From: Actinopolyspora alba
GTDB lineage: Bacteria; Actinomycetota; Actinomycetes; Mycobacteriales; Pseudonocardiaceae
Assembly (NCBI RefSeq): GCF_900112765.1
Contig: NZ_FOMZ01000006.1
Location: 173,435 to 237,434 of the forward strand
Direction: 5' to 3'
DNA length: 64,000 nucleotides
Shown here: one piece after another, positions 49,454 through 59,382 of the stretch
Position numbering within the stretch: position 1 is the stretch's first letter
Layout: every line of letters starts with the position of its first letter
The notes under the pieces: model-generated
What the model saw: the letters and a program-made list of their open reading frames with translations, nothing else
Databases searched by the model: none
What the model was told of the DNA's origin: nothing
Position numbers and translations under genes: made by a program

Positions 49454-50350
49454 GTGGCTGTGGACCTGGTAGGTGGTTGCAAGGCGTTCGTGGCAGTCAG
49501 CGAAGCGGGAAGCTTCACTCGTGGTGCCGCCCTGGCCGGCATTCCCCAGTCGGTGGCCAGCCGTCGGGTTTCGGCACTGGAACGCCATCTCGGTGGGCTG
49601 CTGTTCGACCGTTCGGGAAGGAAGGCGGTACTGACGCCGTTCGGCAGGGACATGCTCCCCTCGGCACGACGCCTGGCCCGGCTCGCCGACGTGCTGGAGC
49701 AGGACGCCCACCACGCCAGGTTCCGTCCGCTACGGATCGCCGTCCCCGAAACCTGCACCACTCGAGACCTGGCCGAACTCGACTCCGAAGCACGTGCTCA
49801 CGAGCTGTTCCTCGAGTTTCGCCCGGCTCCACCCGGCGAACGTTCCGAGCTGGTGCGCACGCACCAGGTACGGGCGGCCGTCACGGCGGTGCCCGCCGAT
49901 ACCGGTGTGTGGAGCGTTCCACTGGGGGTGGCCGGCACTACCGCGCTGGCCCCCGGGCCGGTCTACTTGGAAAGCCTGCGTGTGGGACGATCCGGCCGGT
50001 TACCACGGCGTCGGGTCTGGATCCAGCCGGAGGACGATGTTCCACACATCCGGGACCGCCTCGTGCGAACCCGCGACGCCGTCGGACTGCGACCCGCCCA
50101 GGTCACCGTCGCCGGCTCACTGACCGCGGCCACAGCCGAGGTGCTGGGCTCGGCGGACCTGCTGGTGTGCTCGGCCGCGCAGGCCCGTGAGCTCGGGATG
50201 ACGTGGCGCGCGATCGGTGAGCTGCGGGTCGAACGTGGTTTCGGCATCGAGGCCGTTGTCGCCGCCGACGCCACACGCATCCGGGAACGGCTCCGGCACG
50301 TCGTCGCACGAGCCCTCGGAGCCACAGTGGGCGGGCAGGAGACGGCATGA
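49454..50350 (+). CDS. blaA: LysR-family regulator of beta-lactamase (BlaA-like)
   Basis: 298 residues (two fewer if the GTG at 49460 is used). Winged HTH: FVAVSEAGSFTRGAALAGIPQSVASRRVSALERHLGG; the effector domain is of the shorter actinobacterial kind. Its stop overlaps the next start (ATGA). A LysR gene divergent from a class A beta-lactamase and coupled to a BlaB-like gene reproduces the bla locus described in Streptomyces cacaoi, where BlaA activates the lactamase gene. Confidence 0.85.
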   Translation: MAVDLVGGCKAFVAVSEAGSFTRGAALAGIPQSVASRRVSALERHLGGLLFDRSGRKAVLTPFGRDMLPSARRLARLADVLEQDAHHARFRPLRIAVPETCTTRDLAELDSEARAHELFLEFRPAPPGERSELVRTHQVRAAVTAVPADTGVWSVPLGVAGTTALAPGPVYLESLRVGRSGRLPRRRVWIQPEDDVPHIRDRLVRTRDAVGLRPAQVTVAGSLTAATAEVLGSADLLVCSAAQARELGMTWRAIGELRVERGFGIEAVVAADATRIRERLRHVVARALGATVGGQETA

Positions 50351-51249
50351 GCATCGAATCACTGACCAGGGGACTGCGAGCGGAACTCGAGAACGGGGGA
50401 CTGCGAGGATCGTTCCTCGTACGCGACCTGCACTCCGGCCACGAACTCGGCATCGCCCCGGACGTGTGGTACCCGATCGCCTCGCTGGTCAAGATCCCGC
50501 TGGCCGCCGCCACACTCGAACGCATCCGCCTCGGCGAGCTCGACGGCTCCACCACGGTCGAAGTGCTACCGGGCCGCATCACCACACCGGGGCCCACCGG
50601 ACTGAGCCGGTTTCATCACCCGGCTCGCGTGGCGCTCGACGATCTGCTGTACCTGAGCACCTCGATCAGTGATGGAACGGCCGCCGACGCGCTGTTCGAC
50701 CTGACCTCACCCGAGGAGGTCACACGGCTGCTGCGGCAGTGGGAGCTGCACGGCATCACCGCGCGCCACCGAATACGTGACCTCGCCGACACCCCTGCGG
50801 AACGTCTCGAGCCCACCGAGGTGTCGCTCGCTCACACACTGGCCATCACCGCAGGTACCACCGGGAACGGCCACCCCGTGTCCCAACTCGACGTCACTCG
50901 TGCCAACGCAGGCTCGGCCAGAGCCCTCGTCGACCTGCTACAGGCACTGTGGACCCCCTCCGACATACCTCGAAGCATCGGCACGCGGGTACGCGAACTC
51001 ATGGCCAACAACCTGCTGCGACAACGCCTGGCCCCGGAATTCGTCTCCGATGCCTCGACATGGGCGTCGAAGACCGGAACACTGCTCAACCTGCGCCACG
51101 AGATCGGCGTGGTCGAACACGCCGACGGGCGGGCCTTCGGAATCGCCGCGCTGACCGAATCCCGGGTGGCCGCGGCCAATCAGCCCGAAGCCGACGCGCT
51201 GATGGCGTGGGTGGCGCGAACACTGCGCGATCAGCTGCGGCGCGGCTGA
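50347..51249 (+). CDS. blaB: BlaB-like cytosolic serine beta-lactamase-fold protein
   Basis: 300 residues without a signal peptide. It has penicillin-recognising motifs SLVK (Ser46, Lys49), SDG in STSISDGTAADAL and KTG in WASKTGTLL, but no Glu166-type EPxLN, so rapid hydrolysis is unlikely. In Streptomyces cacaoi BlaB has the same SxxK/SDG/KTG set, is intracellular and is needed with BlaA for induction. It may report on beta-lactam or cell-wall fragments in the cytosol; this part is inference. ATGA overlap with blaA. Confidence 0.85.
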   Translation: MSIESLTRGLRAELENGGLRGSFLVRDLHSGHELGIAPDVWYPIASLVKIPLAAATLERIRLGELDGSTTVEVLPGRITTPGPTGLSRFHHPARVALDDLLYLSTSISDGTAADALFDLTSPEEVTRLLRQWELHGITARHRIRDLADTPAERLEPTEVSLAHTLAITAGTTGNGHPVSQLDVTRANAGSARALVDLLQALWTPSDIPRSIGTRVRELMANNLLRQRLAPEFVSDASTWASKTGTLLNLRHEIGVVEHADGRAFGIAALTESRVAAANQPEADALMAWVARTLRDQLRRG

Positions 51250-54612: not shown

Positions 54613-57405
54613 ATGGAGTCTGATCGATCCCTCCCGCATTTCACGGGGTTGCACGCGCTTCTGACACTGATCCGGAACCTGTACCACCGGCCACGGTTGC
54701 TCACCGCCCCGTCACCGCACGACCGACGTGGCGACCAGCCTCTTCCGCTCGTCTGCCTGCACCGGGACCACTCGGTCACGGATTTCCTGCCGACGCTGAA
54801 GGAGTCCCTGGACACCGCACTGCCGCAGGTTCCCCACGCCCTCATCGACGCGGACGAGGTCGTCGACACCACCACCGACGATCCAACAACCCAGCGTCTA
54901 CTACCCCTCCTGCACGCGATCCAACAGGAACTCGGTAAGGACGAGTTCACCTCGGGCGGCGTCGGCGAGTTCGACAACTACAAGCTCATCGAGTGGCTGA
55001 CACGGCAACACCTGCCGCCGGAACAGGGAAAACGCGACAAGCCCATACTCCACCTGCTGCGGGAGTGGACCGGCGGCCGCCCAGGAACCGGAGGGTTGCG
55101 CACGCTCATCTCCGAAGTTCCACACGCTCTGACCCGCTTCGTGCTGAGCGTATTCCTCTGGATCGGCCAGCTCCTCGGGATGCGGTGGCTGGCGGGGAGA
55201 GTCCCGGGCCTCGGCCGCGAAGCACGCTGGATCATGCGCCAGCCGTTCATGGTGCCGCGGCACTCCATCGGCCTTCAGGGCTTCGCCGAACGCCTGACGC
55301 TCGACCGGCGCGCCTCCGAAAGCCAGGAACAGATCAAGAAACTGCTGCTGCACGCTTTCCTGGAGGATCTCCGCATCGCCTACCGGCGCAGACGATTGCG
55401 AATCCTGCCGCACAGGGCCGGCTGGCGCCGTACCACCTACACCACGGTTCTGCTGGACAACGTCCGCGACACCAACGGTGGCTGGGAATTGTTGCGACTG
55501 ATCAACGAGGTACGCAACGAGACCGGCAAACTCGATCCGCTCCTTGTCGTCGCGGCCACCGACGACCCTCCACAGGCCCCGCAGGACCCCAATCCCTCGC
55601 TGACCGCCGCCGTACACGCGAACGAAGCCCTCTCCGAATGGCAGCGACGGCTGCCCACCCGACGGCAGAAACTCGCTCCCGACGCGCGCTACCTGCACAT
55701 CGAACTTCCAGCCGCCACCCCCGAGGCAGAAACCACCGGCGAGGACCGACAAGCCTGGCAGGACGCGGCGAGCTGGCACCCCCGCCGTGCTCCGCTGCTG
55801 GCACGACGGTACGTGTGCGAGGCACTCGTGCTGGTCCTGCTGGCCGCGGGTCTGATCCAGCCCGCCATCACAGTCAGCCAATCCTGGACATCGAGCTGCG
55901 CCGCGTTCGAGCGATGGTCAGCAGGAACGGTCGCCACCCGCGTGAGTCGTCTGGGGGCCGCCGGCGAGCAGTGTCTCGGCTACAGCGACAGCGCCGTACA
56001 GGTGTTCGGCGCCAACGAGCGGCTGCGTTACGCGCAGTCCGCCGTACACGCGCAGAACGAACGGGCGAAACGGCTACATGCCGATAACCCTCATCGGCCT
56101 TACGTCACACTGATCTATTTCGCTGGGTTGACCAACAGCCGGTTCGGTCCCCGCACCGATCACGCCGTGGCGGAAGAACTGGAAGGACTGCTGCTGCGCC
56201 AGCGAGAACAGAACAAACGGTCCGCGACGGAGCCGCTGCTTCGGATCATCATCGCCAACGGTGGGACAGGAATGCGGGGTGCGCCCGAGGTGACGCGGGA
56301 ACTTCTCGTGCCGCTCGTCGATTCCGATCCCACCATCCTCGGCGTTGTGGGGATGGACCGCAGCGTGACCGAGACCGAACAGGCCATCCGCATCCTCGGC
56401 GAACACGGCATCCCCGTCCTCGGCTCCACACTGACCAGCACCGAGCTGGCCGAGCTCACTCCGCTCTACTTCCAGCTCGTGCCGGGAAACGAGAAACAGG
56501 CCGAGCTGATCGTCAACTACGCGGCACACCTCAACTCGCCGAAGGTCACCCTGTACCACCCGTCCACGAGCGGACGGAACATCTATGCGGCGACGCTCGT
56601 CTCGGCGCTGACCGAGAAGTTCGACAGTACCGACATCGCGCTGGACGAGCGCACGTGGCAGCGTTCGGTCAGCGAGTTGGCACCGCTGTGCGCCGAGGAC
56701 ACCGACCGCAGCCGGGAAATCGCGTTCTACGCGGGCCGGGAGAACACCTTCGGCGACTTCCTGCGCACTGTCCGCCGCAACTGCCCGGACTCAGCCGAAC
56801 TCCCCATGATCGTGGCTTCGGACGCGGTGTCACGGTTCGTCTCCGACCAGCGCAGCCGCAAAACCACCGAGTTCAACGGTGTGACGGTCTCCTACGTCGG
56901 CATGGGAAGCCCCGTGATCCTGGCGGGTGAGGACTGCGTGGCCGGCCGCGCCAACTCGCTGCCCGCGGGAGGAACGCAGCTCAACGCGTTCTGCAGCGGC
57001 TACCGCGAGCTGCGCGAGACACTACGCGCACAGCTGCCCCGAGCGGAAGCGCCGAACATGCCCTGGCCCGGCGAGCGGGTCGGCGGCCTGTACGACGCCG
57101 CGGGGTTGTTCGTCAACGCCGTCATCGCCATCCGCCACGAGCGGGGGCCGACGAAGAGCGGCCTCACCCCACACCGCGCCGAGGTCGCCCAGCAACTTCG
57201 TGACACCTCGTTCGAGGGGGCCACGGGCACGATCGACTTCGGCCGTTCCCAAATCGCCGATGACCGCAGCCTCGCCGTTCTGCGTATCGACAACATCAGC
57301 GAGCTCCGCGGCCCGGCGGGAACACCGACCTGCGCGTACCTCATCGGGACGGTCTACGACGGACGGCACCCCAGCACCGCGACCGGATGCCCACGGATCG
57401 AGTAG
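54613..57405 (+). CDS. Large transmembrane receptor: degenerate NTPase-like domain, TM helix and type I periplasmic-binding domain
   Basis: 930 residues. N-terminal ~390 residues are predicted cytosolic: PLPLVCLHRDHSVTDFLPTL occupies the place of a P-loop strand but has no GxxxxGK, while TYTTVLLDNVRDTNGG and DPLLVVAATDDPP look like Walker B and sensor strands of a STAND/AAA-type fold. A hydrophobic stretch at 174-195 may touch the membrane; a clear helix lies at 400-422. Residues 450-925 form a branched-chain-amino-acid-type ligand-binding domain (VTLIYFAGLTNS, TILGVVGMDRSVTETEQAI, PVLGSTLTSTELAELTPLYFQLVPG, AAGLFVNAVIAI) with six cysteines. Unlike an ABC binding protein it is membrane-tied and no permease is encoded. 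A receptor coupling an outside ligand to an inside domain is the best reading; the function is unproven. Confidence 0.65.
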   Translation: MESDRSLPHFTGLHALLTLIRNLYHRPRLLTAPSPHDRRGDQPLPLVCLHRDHSVTDFLPTLKESLDTALPQVPHALIDADEVVDTTTDDPTTQRLLPLLHAIQQELGKDEFTSGGVGEFDNYKLIEWLTRQHLPPEQGKRDKPILHLLREWTGGRPGTGGLRTLISEVPHALTRFVLSVFLWIGQLLGMRWLAGRVPGLGREARWIMRQPFMVPRHSIGLQGFAERLTLDRRASESQEQIKKLLLHAFLEDLRIAYRRRRLRILPHRAGWRRTTYTTVLLDNVRDTNGGWELLRLINEVRNETGKLDPLLVVAATDDPPQAPQDPNPSLTAAVHANEALSEWQRRLPTRRQKLAPDARYLHIELPAATPEAETTGEDRQAWQDAASWHPRRAPLLARRYVCEALVLVLLAAGLIQPAITVSQSWTSSCAAFERWSAGTVATRVSRLGAAGEQCLGYSDSAVQVFGANERLRYAQSAVHAQNERAKRLHADNPHRPYVTLIYFAGLTNSRFGPRTDHAVAEELEGLLLRQREQNKRSATEPLLRIIIANGGTGMRGAPEVTRELLVPLVDSDPTILGVVGMDRSVTETEQAIRILGEHGIPVLGSTLTSTELAELTPLYFQLVPGNEKQAELIVNYAAHLNSPKVTLYHPSTSGRNIYAATLVSALTEKFDSTDIALDERTWQRSVSELAPLCAEDTDRSREIAFYAGRENTFGDFLRTVRRNCPDSAELPMIVASDAVSRFVSDQRSRKTTEFNGVTVSYVGMGSPVILAGEDCVAGRANSLPAGGTQLNAFCSGYRELRETLRAQLPRAEAPNMPWPGERVGGLYDAAGLFVNAVIAIRHERGPTKSGLTPHRAEVAQQLRDTSFEGATGTIDFGRSQIADDRSLAVLRIDNISELRGPAGTPTCAYLIGTVYDGRHPSTATGCPRIE

Positions 57406-57631
57406 CACCGCGGCTGGCAGAGCCACCGGCGGATCGGTGGTTTCGGGCAACATCACAACCGCGGAGGAGCGGTCAACTCCTCGACCTCCCGGCGGGTGCG
57501 TGAACCGATGCGGCCGCGTCACCAATAATGCGATCATGAGCGGTACGGACATCACCATCGTGGGCGTGACACCGTGGTGCCTGCGCCCGCCGGACAGCGG
57601 ATCGGCAACCAGCGGAGAGGGGAGTGCCACC

Positions 57632-58150
57632 GTGGACCGATCCGACCTGCGCGTTCGCTGTCGCCGACGGGTCGACGAGCTGATCGGCCACATCGGTGTG
57701 CCACACCCGTGGGACATCAACGATTTCCTCGATCGGCTCGAACAACACCGCGGCCGCGACATCGACCTGTGCCCGATCGTGTGGACCCGTGGGGACAGCT
57801 CCGGGTTGTGGCAACAACACGCCGACCACGACGTGATCGCCTACGCCGCCAACACCAGTGGTTTTCACCAGGACCACATCATCCTGCACGAGGTCGGGCA
57901 CATGATCTCACGCCATCGTGGCCACTGTGTCCTGTCCGAACAGGAGGCACAACGCATCGCACCGGATCTGGCTCCGGCGGCGCTGGCGCACCTGCTGGAT
58001 CGGGCAACCGGGGAGTCGCAGGAGCACGAGGCCGAAACAGTGGCGTCGCTGCTGCACCAGCGGGCACGTCGACGTCCCCACGTGGCGGGCGAGGCCCCAC
58101 CTGTGACCGCACGACGTCTCGCCCGGGTCGACTACATCTTCGGAGAGTGA
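57632..58150 (+). CDS. ImmA/IrrE-family metallopeptidase
   Basis: 172 residues from GTG 57632, selected for the strong ribosome site GGAGAGGGGAG 7 bases upstream; an ATG at 57536 would add 32 residues of poor quality. The zinc signature is IILHEVGHMISRH (His86, Glu87, His90), with a downstream EHEAETVASLL supplying the third ligand Glu. ImmA and IrrE cut repressors (ImmR, DdrO) in response to a signal. It follows the receptor gene after 226 bp that contain a small hairpin (GAGGAG/CTCCTC), and it is 2 bases from the 7-TM gene. The usual HTH substrate gene is not adjacent. Confidence 0.85.
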   Translation: MDRSDLRVRCRRRVDELIGHIGVPHPWDINDFLDRLEQHRGRDIDLCPIVWTRGDSSGLWQQHADHDVIAYAANTSGFHQDHIILHEVGHMISRHRGHCVLSEQEAQRIAPDLAPAALAHLLDRATGESQEHEAETVASLLHQRARRRPHVAGEAPPVTARRLARVDYIFGE

Positions 58151-58152
58151 AC

Positions 58153-59382
58153 ATGGGCGTGTCCGTGCTGTTCCTGACCACCGGCTTCGTGGTGTTCTCG
58201 GTAGCCGGTTACCGCATCGTGCTCTGGAACCGAGGACGCAGGCGCCCCACGGAGATACCGCTGATCACGCTCGCCTGCGCACTGGGAACGGCCTTCATCA
58301 CACTGGCACCCGTCGTACAGACCGCCGAGAGCGCACTCCTGCCCAGTCTCGGACGGCTGCTGTCGAACATGTGCACACTCGTGGCGGCGTTCGGATTTCT
58401 GCACCTGATGCTCTACGTCGGCCACCCCGCCGAACAGGTACCCCGCAAGGTCCGTACTCGCCTGCTGAGCCTGCTGCTGACGCTGCTGGGCATGATCGCG
58501 ATGTTCGCGTTCAGCGACCCGCCCGACGGAACCGGTGTGTTCACCGGGCTCTACGCCACCCAGCCGACCCTGGCCGGCTACACACTGCTGTACTCGCTGT
58601 ACCTGGGCACGGCCGTGACCGAGCTGATCCTGCTGACCATGAGCTCGATCCGCTACACCCGAACCTGGCTGCGCGCCGGGATGGTGCTGCTGGCCGTCGG
58701 CAGCACACTGGCAGCCGGATATCTCGCGCACAAACTGTGGTCGGTGCTGTCGGAACTGCTGACCGGATCGGTGGCCGAGCCCTACTGCCCCTCGGCGTTC
58801 GCCACGGTCGACTGCACCTTCGCGATCGGTCTTCCGGCGCTGTCCGTGCTGGCCATCGTGCTGGGGGCCGCTGTGCCCACTCTCGGGCCGCGCTGCGAAC
58901 AACTCGTCCGTTCACTGGCCCACCGGCGTTCCTACCGGCGGCTGTACCCGCTGTGGCACACACTGCACACCGCGATGCCCAATATCGCCTTCACCGTCGA
59001 AGACCCCGAACGAACCGGCACGACACCGGAACGTGGCGATTCCGAACAGCTGTACCGACGTGTGGTGGCCATCCGCGACGGCCTGCTCCTGCTGCGACCC
59101 TACCGATCGGTCGAGGACACCCGCGAGCACCAGACCGCGGTGCGGCGGGACGGTGTCGCCGAGCAGGACCGCGCCGCCGTCGTCGAGGCCCGAGACATCC
59201 ACACCGCGCTGTCCCGACACAACCGCGACGCGCCGATCCCCGAGACCAAGCGCACACGCGCCGCCGAACCCTACGACGACCTCACCGACGAAATCAGCTG
59301 GCTCGTGCGGGTCTCCGAAGCCCTGGCTCGGCAGCCTGCCCCGACCGACGCGGACAACGAGCGGCCACAGCAACCCTACTGA
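58153..59382 (+). CDS. MAB_1171c-type seven-helix membrane protein (DUF6545-like C-terminus)
   Basis: 409 residues. Seven membrane helices at about 2-22, 33-55, 68-88, 101-120, 137-160, 170-193 and 210-235, then about 170 soluble residues with RCEQLVRSLAHRRSYRRLYPLWHTLHTAMP, YRRVVAIRDGLLLLRPY and DEISWLVRVSEALARQ. This is the architecture of actinobacterial MAB_1171c proteins, often annotated as putative transporters and often next to ImmA/IrrE genes. With seven helices and a cytosolic tail it could equally be a sensor. Two bases separate it from the peptidase gene. Confidence 0.8.
   Translation: MGVSVLFLTTGFVVFSVAGYRIVLWNRGRRRPTEIPLITLACALGTAFITLAPVVQTAESALLPSLGRLLSNMCTLVAAFGFLHLMLYVGHPAEQVPRKVRTRLLSLLLTLLGMIAMFAFSDPPDGTGVFTGLYATQPTLAGYTLLYSLYLGTAVTELILLTMSSIRYTRTWLRAGMVLLAVGSTLAAGYLAHKLWSVLSELLTGSVAEPYCPSAFATVDCTFAIGLPALSVLAIVLGAAVPTLGPRCEQLVRSLAHRRSYRRLYPLWHTLHTAMPNIAFTVEDPERTGTTPERGDSEQLYRRVVAIRDGLLLLRPYRSVEDTREHQTAVRRDGVAEQDRAAVVEARDIHTALSRHNRDAPIPETKRTRAAEPYDDLTDEISWLVRVSEALARQPAPTDADNERPQQPY

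What the first reader, a model, noticed from the sequence alone, without database searches (positions are those of the whole stretch)
54613..59382. Receptor / ImmA-IrrE peptidase / seven-helix protein module
Three consecutive plus-strand genes: a 930-residue protein with a P-loop-less NTPase-like inside domain, a single strong membrane helix and an outside amino-acid-type binding domain; a zinc peptidase of the ImmA/IrrE type; and a 7-helix MAB_1171c protein. The last two are a known recurrent pair. The first looks like a ligand-binding receptor that is not part of an ABC importer. Together they suggest an outside-ligand-to-proteolysis signalling route, by analogy with BlaR/ImmA systems. No HTH substrate is adjacent, so the regulator cut by the peptidase may be encoded elsewhere.
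Basis: partly seen in the sequence, partly recalled or inferred. Interest (0 to 1): 0.8.

Follow-up and report, generated by a model that had tools for sequence, protein, structure and literature searches.

The report
Orphan receptor beside displaced peptidase pair
Three neighbouring genes in an actinomycete that look like one signalling module are more likely two separate units: a membrane receptor built on a disabled molecular switch, and a peptidase-plus-membrane-protein pair that has lost its usual regulator gene.

Summary
The receptor is a degenerate STAND-type NTPase (no P-loop in 31 of 31 aligned relatives), one membrane helix and an outside type I binding domain. More distant relatives carry a true P-loop, as long fusions or as two adjacent genes.

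The three-gene module is not supported. The trio occurs in the window and three close relatives. Of 39 other receptor loci examined, one has ImmA and MAB_1171c nearby, on the other strand, with its own regulator.

The peptidase pair belongs to an XRE-ImmA-MAB_1171c operon: 25 of 26 ImmA loci outside the cluster have the XRE and 25 the MAB gene. The window's pair lacks the XRE. An XRE of the matching subfamily lies on another contig of the same genome, beside a PAP2 gene and behind conserved dyads. It is the best candidate substrate.

Most likely: an orphan receptor next to a regulator-less ImmA pair that acts on a distant XRE. The signalling steps are inferred; no structure model was obtained (server busy at 13 attempts).

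The parts
54613..57405 (+). Receptor: pseudo-STAND NTPase (residues about 1-395), one TM helix (within 397-419), outside type I periplasmic-binding domain (about 430-930)
54736..54801 (+). Degenerate P-loop region (receptor residues 42-63); GxxGxGK[ST] of P-loop relatives aligns to residues 51-56 with two gap columns, motif absent
   Evidence: 0 of 31 family members have GxxxxGK[ST] in the first 120 residues; 8 of 8 selected split or long relatives have it here
57406..57631 (.). Gap where the XRE gene sits in most other ImmA-MAB_1171c operons; no HTH gene seen, no XRE operator motif
57632..58150 (+). ImmA/IrrE-type (M78) zinc peptidase, HExxH intact
58153..59382 (+). MAB_1171c-family membrane protein with C-terminal DUF6545, start 2 bp after the peptidase stop

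Best explanation
Two independent units lie side by side. (1) The receptor is an orphan single-pass membrane receptor: an outside type I binding domain is joined through one helix to a STAND-like NTPase domain inside that has lost its P-loop. Inferred: ligand binding outside changes the inside domain, which acts as a protein-binding scaffold, not as an enzyme. Its partner is unknown. (2) ImmA and MAB_1171c are two parts of a recurrent XRE-ImmA-MAB_1171c operon. Inferred by analogy with IrrE-DdrO and ImmA-ImmR: the membrane protein senses a signal and activates the peptidase, which removes the XRE repressor. The window's pair lacks its XRE gene; its likeliest target is the matching-subfamily XRE on contig C20 of the same genome, which probably represses its own operon with a PAP2 gene. 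The juxtaposition with the receptor is recent and probably not functional.
For: Receptor: a profile of its N-terminal part finds P-loop NTPase genes next to separate TM-binding-domain genes (L198, L200, L207, L208, L209) and in long fusions (L203-L205), 8 of 12 loci examined. These carry AAA_16/AAA_22/nSTAND/NACHT signals, 2 of 7 tested above a Pfam cut-off, and align over the Walker A, Walker B and sensor regions. Of 39 other receptor loci, 1 has MAB/ImmA nearby; no convincing recurrent neighbour. Receptors of 79% identity in the same genus (L034, L035) lie in other surroundings without the pair. Pair: of 26 ImmA loci outside the cluster, 25 have MAB, 25 XRE, 0 the receptor in the stretch fetched. 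Own-genome XRE at C20:271166-271537, 62% identical to the XRE of an intact operon, followed by PAP2, no ImmA/MAB in 18 kb; PAP2 also follows MAB in G117 and in 10 of the 26 loci. TGTYRACA dyads before this XRE in six genomes, whose XREs are 96-100% identical.
Against: All four cluster genomes keep the three genes side by side, and the 144 bp before the receptor are 96.6-98.6% identical in the three relatives, so a cluster-specific link is possible. G177 has the XRE-PAP2 locus without any close ImmA, so that XRE does not need one. The six orphan-XRE genomes look like one clade (HrpB at least 90% identical), so their co-occurrence with XRE-less pairs (5 of 6) is confounded by descent. The window's MAB groups with operons of other genera, not with the XRE-ImmA-MAB-PAP2 operon of its own genus (28% identity), so C20 and the window pair are not simply two halves of one operon. 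The XRE tree is poorly resolved (support 0.08). The XRE motif is absent before the receptor and ImmA, and also before the intact G117 operon. No structure model.
Confidence: 0.68

Rival explanations
1. The first reader's module: the receptor senses an outside ligand and switches on MAB_1171c-ImmA, which cuts a regulator encoded elsewhere.
For: Same order and strand in four genomes; genes under purifying selection; no XRE next to this pair, so a new input could have replaced local control; an XRE candidate exists in trans.
Against: 38 of 39 other receptor loci examined lack the pair and 26 of 26 other ImmA loci show no receptor in the stretch fetched, up to 1.5 kb each side. 226 bp gap before ImmA. 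In L032 the receptor carries an in-frame stop while ImmA and MAB are intact, and its dS to the window (0.087) differs from ImmA (0.23) and MAB (0.21), so the genes do not share one history there.
Confidence: 0.13
2. The ImmA-MAB_1171c pair here is a decaying remnant: without its XRE it has no substrate and no function.
For: XRE absent; MAB evolves faster than ImmA (dN/dS 0.30-0.32); other XRE-less ImmA-MAB loci exist in the genus (L176, L178, L093).
Against: No stops in ImmA or MAB in three relatives and ImmA dN/dS 0.10-0.12; catalytic residues invariant.
Confidence: 0.12
3. The receptor is the substrate-binding part of an ABC importer with an unusual N-terminal extension.
For: Outside domain matches ANF_receptor and Peripla_BP_6 and a solved branched-chain amino-acid binding protein (4gnr, E 4.4e-9).
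Against: An inside NTPase-like domain of about 395 residues precedes the helix. Among the neighbour clusters listed (present in 4 or more of 39 loci) I recognised no ABC permease or ATPase.
Confidence: 0.05

Closest known systems
IrrE-DdrO (Deinococcus) and ImmA-ImmR (recalled) peptidase-repressor pairs
   Same: M78 zinc peptidase with HExxH; the partner in most relatives is an XRE-family gene. PMC7907104 (abstract and passages seen) states that IrrE cleaves and inactivates the XRE-type repressor DdrO, that similar pairs are widespread and mostly unstudied, and that what activates them is unclear.
   Different: Here a MAB_1171c membrane protein is coupled to the peptidase, and the XRE is absent from the locus; a candidate lies on another contig.
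MAB_1171c family (NF042915, with DUF6545)
   Same: Nearly full-length match.
   Different: Named a putative transporter. The only paper found reports a Mycobacterium abscessus knockout with about 50% less biofilm (PMC8707978, passages seen); ImmA is not mentioned there.
STAND NTPases, and the TM-plus-outside-binding-domain tails noted in 'System 4' of Kaur et al. 2020 (PMC7159879, section 33 read)
   Same: Inside domain, TM helix, outside periplasmic-binding domain at the C-terminus, in actinobacteria.
   Different: System 4 consists of an EACC1 gene and usually a caspase-family protein. Here the inside domain is a pseudo-STAND NTPase; no such partner was recognised, though EACC1 was not searched for.

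Membership tests
ImmA/IrrE (M78) peptidases | HExxH zinc motif and downstream acidic ligand | tested here: met
   H86, E87, H90, E131, E133, E135 invariant in 10 sequences. Pfam score 16.8 against cut-off 22, so the family model itself is not passed.
XRE-ImmA-MAB_1171c operon | XRE gene directly upstream of ImmA | tested here: not met
   Present in 25 of 26 ImmA loci outside the cluster, or 25 of 28 if the second copies in G097 and G165 (L178, L093) are counted; absent in the window and three relatives.
XRE-ImmA-MAB_1171c operon | MAB_1171c gene directly downstream of ImmA | tested here: met
   Start 2 bp after the stop; 25 of 26 other loci (the exception, L132, is a shorter stretch, 2797 bp).
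STAND NTPases | Walker A (P-loop) | tested here: not met
   0 of 31 family members; 8 of 8 selected P-loop relatives carry it at the aligned place.
STAND NTPases | Homology over the NTPase core, with Walker B-like strand | tested here: met
   N-terminal profile hits at E 1e-14 to 1e-21 for six of eight loci, weaker for L208 (2.6e-6) and L200 (6.5e-4); the reverse profile finds family members down to 1e-22; LLD strand aligned.
ABC importer binding proteins | Linked ABC permease and ATPase genes | tested here: not met
   None recognised among clusters in 4 or more of 39 loci, nor among the ten neighbours tested in the window.
Kaur et al. System 4 | EACC1 gene plus caspase-family protein | not tested
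   Pfam shows no caspase domain in the receptor; EACC1 was not searched.
BlaR-type receptor proteolysis | Ligand binding outside triggers proteolysis of a repressor inside | not testable with these tools
   Needs a bench experiment.

The most novel reading that the evidence does not exclude
In this Actinopolyspora cluster an ImmA pathway has been rewired: an ImmA-MAB_1171c pair without its own XRE took up position behind a pseudo-STAND binding-domain receptor that now supplies the input, and it controls an XRE-PAP2 operon elsewhere in the genome, itself the remainder of an XRE-ImmA-MAB_1171c-PAP2 operon.
Probability: 0.12. Interest if true: 0.75.

Novelty: new variant of a known kind. Interest (0 to 1): 0.42.

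Why it matters
It separates a chance neighbourhood from a real operon and gives the XRE-ImmA-MAB_1171c operon a testable form: gene order, a dyad motif and a named XRE candidate for a peptidase without an adjacent repressor. It also describes a receptor family whose switch domain has lost its nucleotide site while keeping the outside sensor, with P-loop relatives as fusions and as split genes, so signalling without nucleotide can be tested.

Tried and rejected
Conserved neighbour of the receptor: none convincing (on L032, L034 and L036-L072; clusters in fewer than 4 loci not listed). The simple gene caller missed ImmA and MAB in the window, so neighbours could be lost. Shared operator between the C20 XRE and the receptor or ImmA promoters: not found. 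Genome-wide CTGTYRACAG: 8 places, 2 at the XRE promoter, four CTGTCGACAG, and two others on C28, one inside a called gene and one 9 bp into a called ORF. The reversed control pattern has 14 places, so the motif is not enriched in the genome. TGTYRACA stands before 10 of the 28 other XRE domains (two of these 28 are the same G117 locus), so it is not general. Viral contigs for receptor relatives: none confirmed. Defence library: only a weak RmrA match for ImmA. Sigma-70 scan: nothing near the ImmA or receptor start. Co-occurrence of orphan XRE and XRE-less pairs (5 of 6 genomes): confounded by descent.

Structure prediction was asked for 13 times and answered 'busy' each time; no fold search was therefore made.
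Full report
What is there. The window lies on contig C22 of G000, by its closest relatives an Actinopolyspora (L031 A. righensis, L032 A. mzabensis, 97-98% identical receptors). The receptor (54613-57405), the ImmA-type peptidase (57632-58150) and the MAB_1171c protein (58153-59382) are intact and on one strand.

The receptor. Its outside part matches type I binding domains; 8 of 31 relatives match Peripla_BP_6 and 8 of 31 ANF_receptor at E up to 0.1. The window protein has eight cysteines after the membrane helix (429, 454, 693, 724, 775, 794, 907, 926). C454, C693 and C724 are invariant and C429 nearly so over 31 relatives, which fits an outside, disulphide-bonded domain (inference). The inside part has no convincing family match of its own. 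A profile of residues 1-395 from 31 relatives, however, finds NTPase-like proteins in 8 of 12 further loci examined: as separate genes just before, or overlapping, a TM-binding-domain gene (L198, L200, L207, L208, L209) and in 1280-1721 residue frames that hold both parts (L203, L204, L205). The 12 loci were chosen by hand because the outside domain had matched, so they are no random sample. In L199, L202 and L206 only the outside domain was recognised, and in L201 only an outside domain within an 851-residue frame. All eight carry GxxxxGK[ST]. Pfam sees AAA_16, AAA_22, nSTAND or NACHT signals in the seven tested, two of them above a cut-off (L198, L203). Aligned, the P-loop falls on receptor residues 51-56, where 0 of 31 receptor-family members have it, while the LLD strand of Walker B is kept in the window and in several relatives shown.

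How widespread. 93 of 200 genomes of the taxonomic family match the receptor, many only over the outside domain, among them 6 of the 10 of the genus. In the phylum sample 30 of 396 genomes match, most of them weakly and over part of the binding domain.

The module test. From the matches I took 39 receptor loci outside the closest cluster (L034-L072, four of them shorter than 17 kb). ImmA and MAB occur near the receptor in one (L046, opposite strand, with its own XRE, about 2.6 kb or more away). In the two 79%-identical Actinopolyspora receptors the surroundings are different and lack the pair. The trio was found in the window, L031, L032 and L033. At the matching site of G177 and G038 (L192, L193), between the 2'-5' RNA ligase and the hydrolase genes, neither receptor nor pair was found. 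In L032 the receptor has an in-frame stop and a lower dS to the window (0.087) than ImmA (0.23) and MAB (0.21), so the genes have not shared one history.

The pair. 139 of 200 family genomes have an ImmA match. Of the 30 loci returned, 4 are the cluster itself. Of the other 26, 25 have MAB behind and 25 an XRE in front. The two second copies in G097 and G165 (L178, L093) were not among the 30; both lack the XRE, which makes 25 of 28. All three XRE-less loci outside the cluster are in Actinopolyspora. A PAP2 gene was found in 10 of the 26; the stretches are short, so absence in the rest says little. The two other MAB loci of the own genome have an HTH gene in front: in L078 by search, in L079 only by eye. 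By tree, the window's ImmA groups with G048 and its MAB with G005, G048 and G010, not with the intact operon of its own genus in G117 (MAB 28% identical).

The candidate substrate. A search with the XRE of the intact G117 operon finds, in the own genome, one close match at C20:271166-271537 (62% identical) and one distant match, 31%, that belongs to L078. The C20 protein is an HTH_3 protein (above cut-off) and is followed by a gene with a weak PAP2 match (below cut-off); no ImmA or MAB lies in the 18 kb examined. Six genomes of the genus, the own one included, share this XRE-PAP2 locus, and the XRE is 96-100% identical among them. In G117 the operon reads XRE-ImmA-MAB-PAP2, and in G038 and G097 ImmA-MAB-PAP2 without XRE exists, so XRE-PAP2 looks like an operon that lost its middle (inference). 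Before the XRE lie two TGTYRACA dyads in all six genomes, with CACTGTAAAC and GTTTAC arms, one of which is changed in L174. Such dyads stand before 10 of the 28 other XRE domains checked, but not before the G117 operon. This looks like autoregulation (inference). The motif is absent before the receptor and ImmA.

Mechanism. Shown: gene content, motif states, conservation, operon anatomy. Inferred: that MAB_1171c activates ImmA, that ImmA inactivates the C20 XRE, that PAP2 is an output, and that the receptor signals by protein contact. The precedents are IrrE-DdrO (PMC7907104, abstract and passages seen) and ImmA-ImmR (recalled).

Literature. Ten searches. MAB_1171c: 1 paper. DUF6545: 0. STAND NTPase with periplasmic binding protein and actinobacteria: 0. 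'ImmA IrrE' with XRE and Streptomyces: 0 (the slash spelling could not be searched). IrrE, XRE, metallopeptidase, Actinobacteria: 1, a Microbacterium prophage paper of which I saw the listing only. ImmA, XRE, PAP2, Actinobacteria: 0. Substrate-binding protein with NACHT domain and others: 0. None of what I saw describes this receptor family or operon; one search was too loose to be useful and of the listing I opened one paper. Kaur et al. 2020 (section 33 read) note a TM-plus-binding-domain tail in a different, caspase-based system.

Noticed in passing
L170:9146-10253 (G000:C20): XRE gene followed by a PAP2-like gene, with conserved TGTYRACA dyads in front, in six Actinopolyspora genomes; looks like the remainder of an XRE-ImmA-MAB_1171c-PAP2 operon.
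   Followed up: partly
L198:4924-8972, L207:5795-9421, L209:6182-9918; L203:3893-7732, L204:2454-7616, L205:5314-9237: P-loop STAND-like NTPase plus TM-binding-domain receptors, as adjacent or overlapping genes or as single frames of 1280-1721 residues: possibly active relatives of the pseudo-NTPase receptor.
   Followed up: partly
L032:8001-10787: The A. mzabensis receptor copy has an in-frame TAA early in the gene, while ImmA and MAB_1171c beside it are intact; its dS to the window is lower than that of its neighbours.
   Followed up: partly
L176:6092-9478 and L178:3780-9613: XRE-less ImmA-MAB_1171c-PAP2 downstream of a membrane-protein gene (in L178 by eye preceded by a GntR-like and an ABC ATPase-like gene, with an amidohydrolase-like gene between) in two Actinopolyspora genomes.
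   Followed up: no
window 49454-51249: LysR-type regulator gene overlapping a Beta-lactamase2-family gene on the same strand (Pfam).
   Followed up: no
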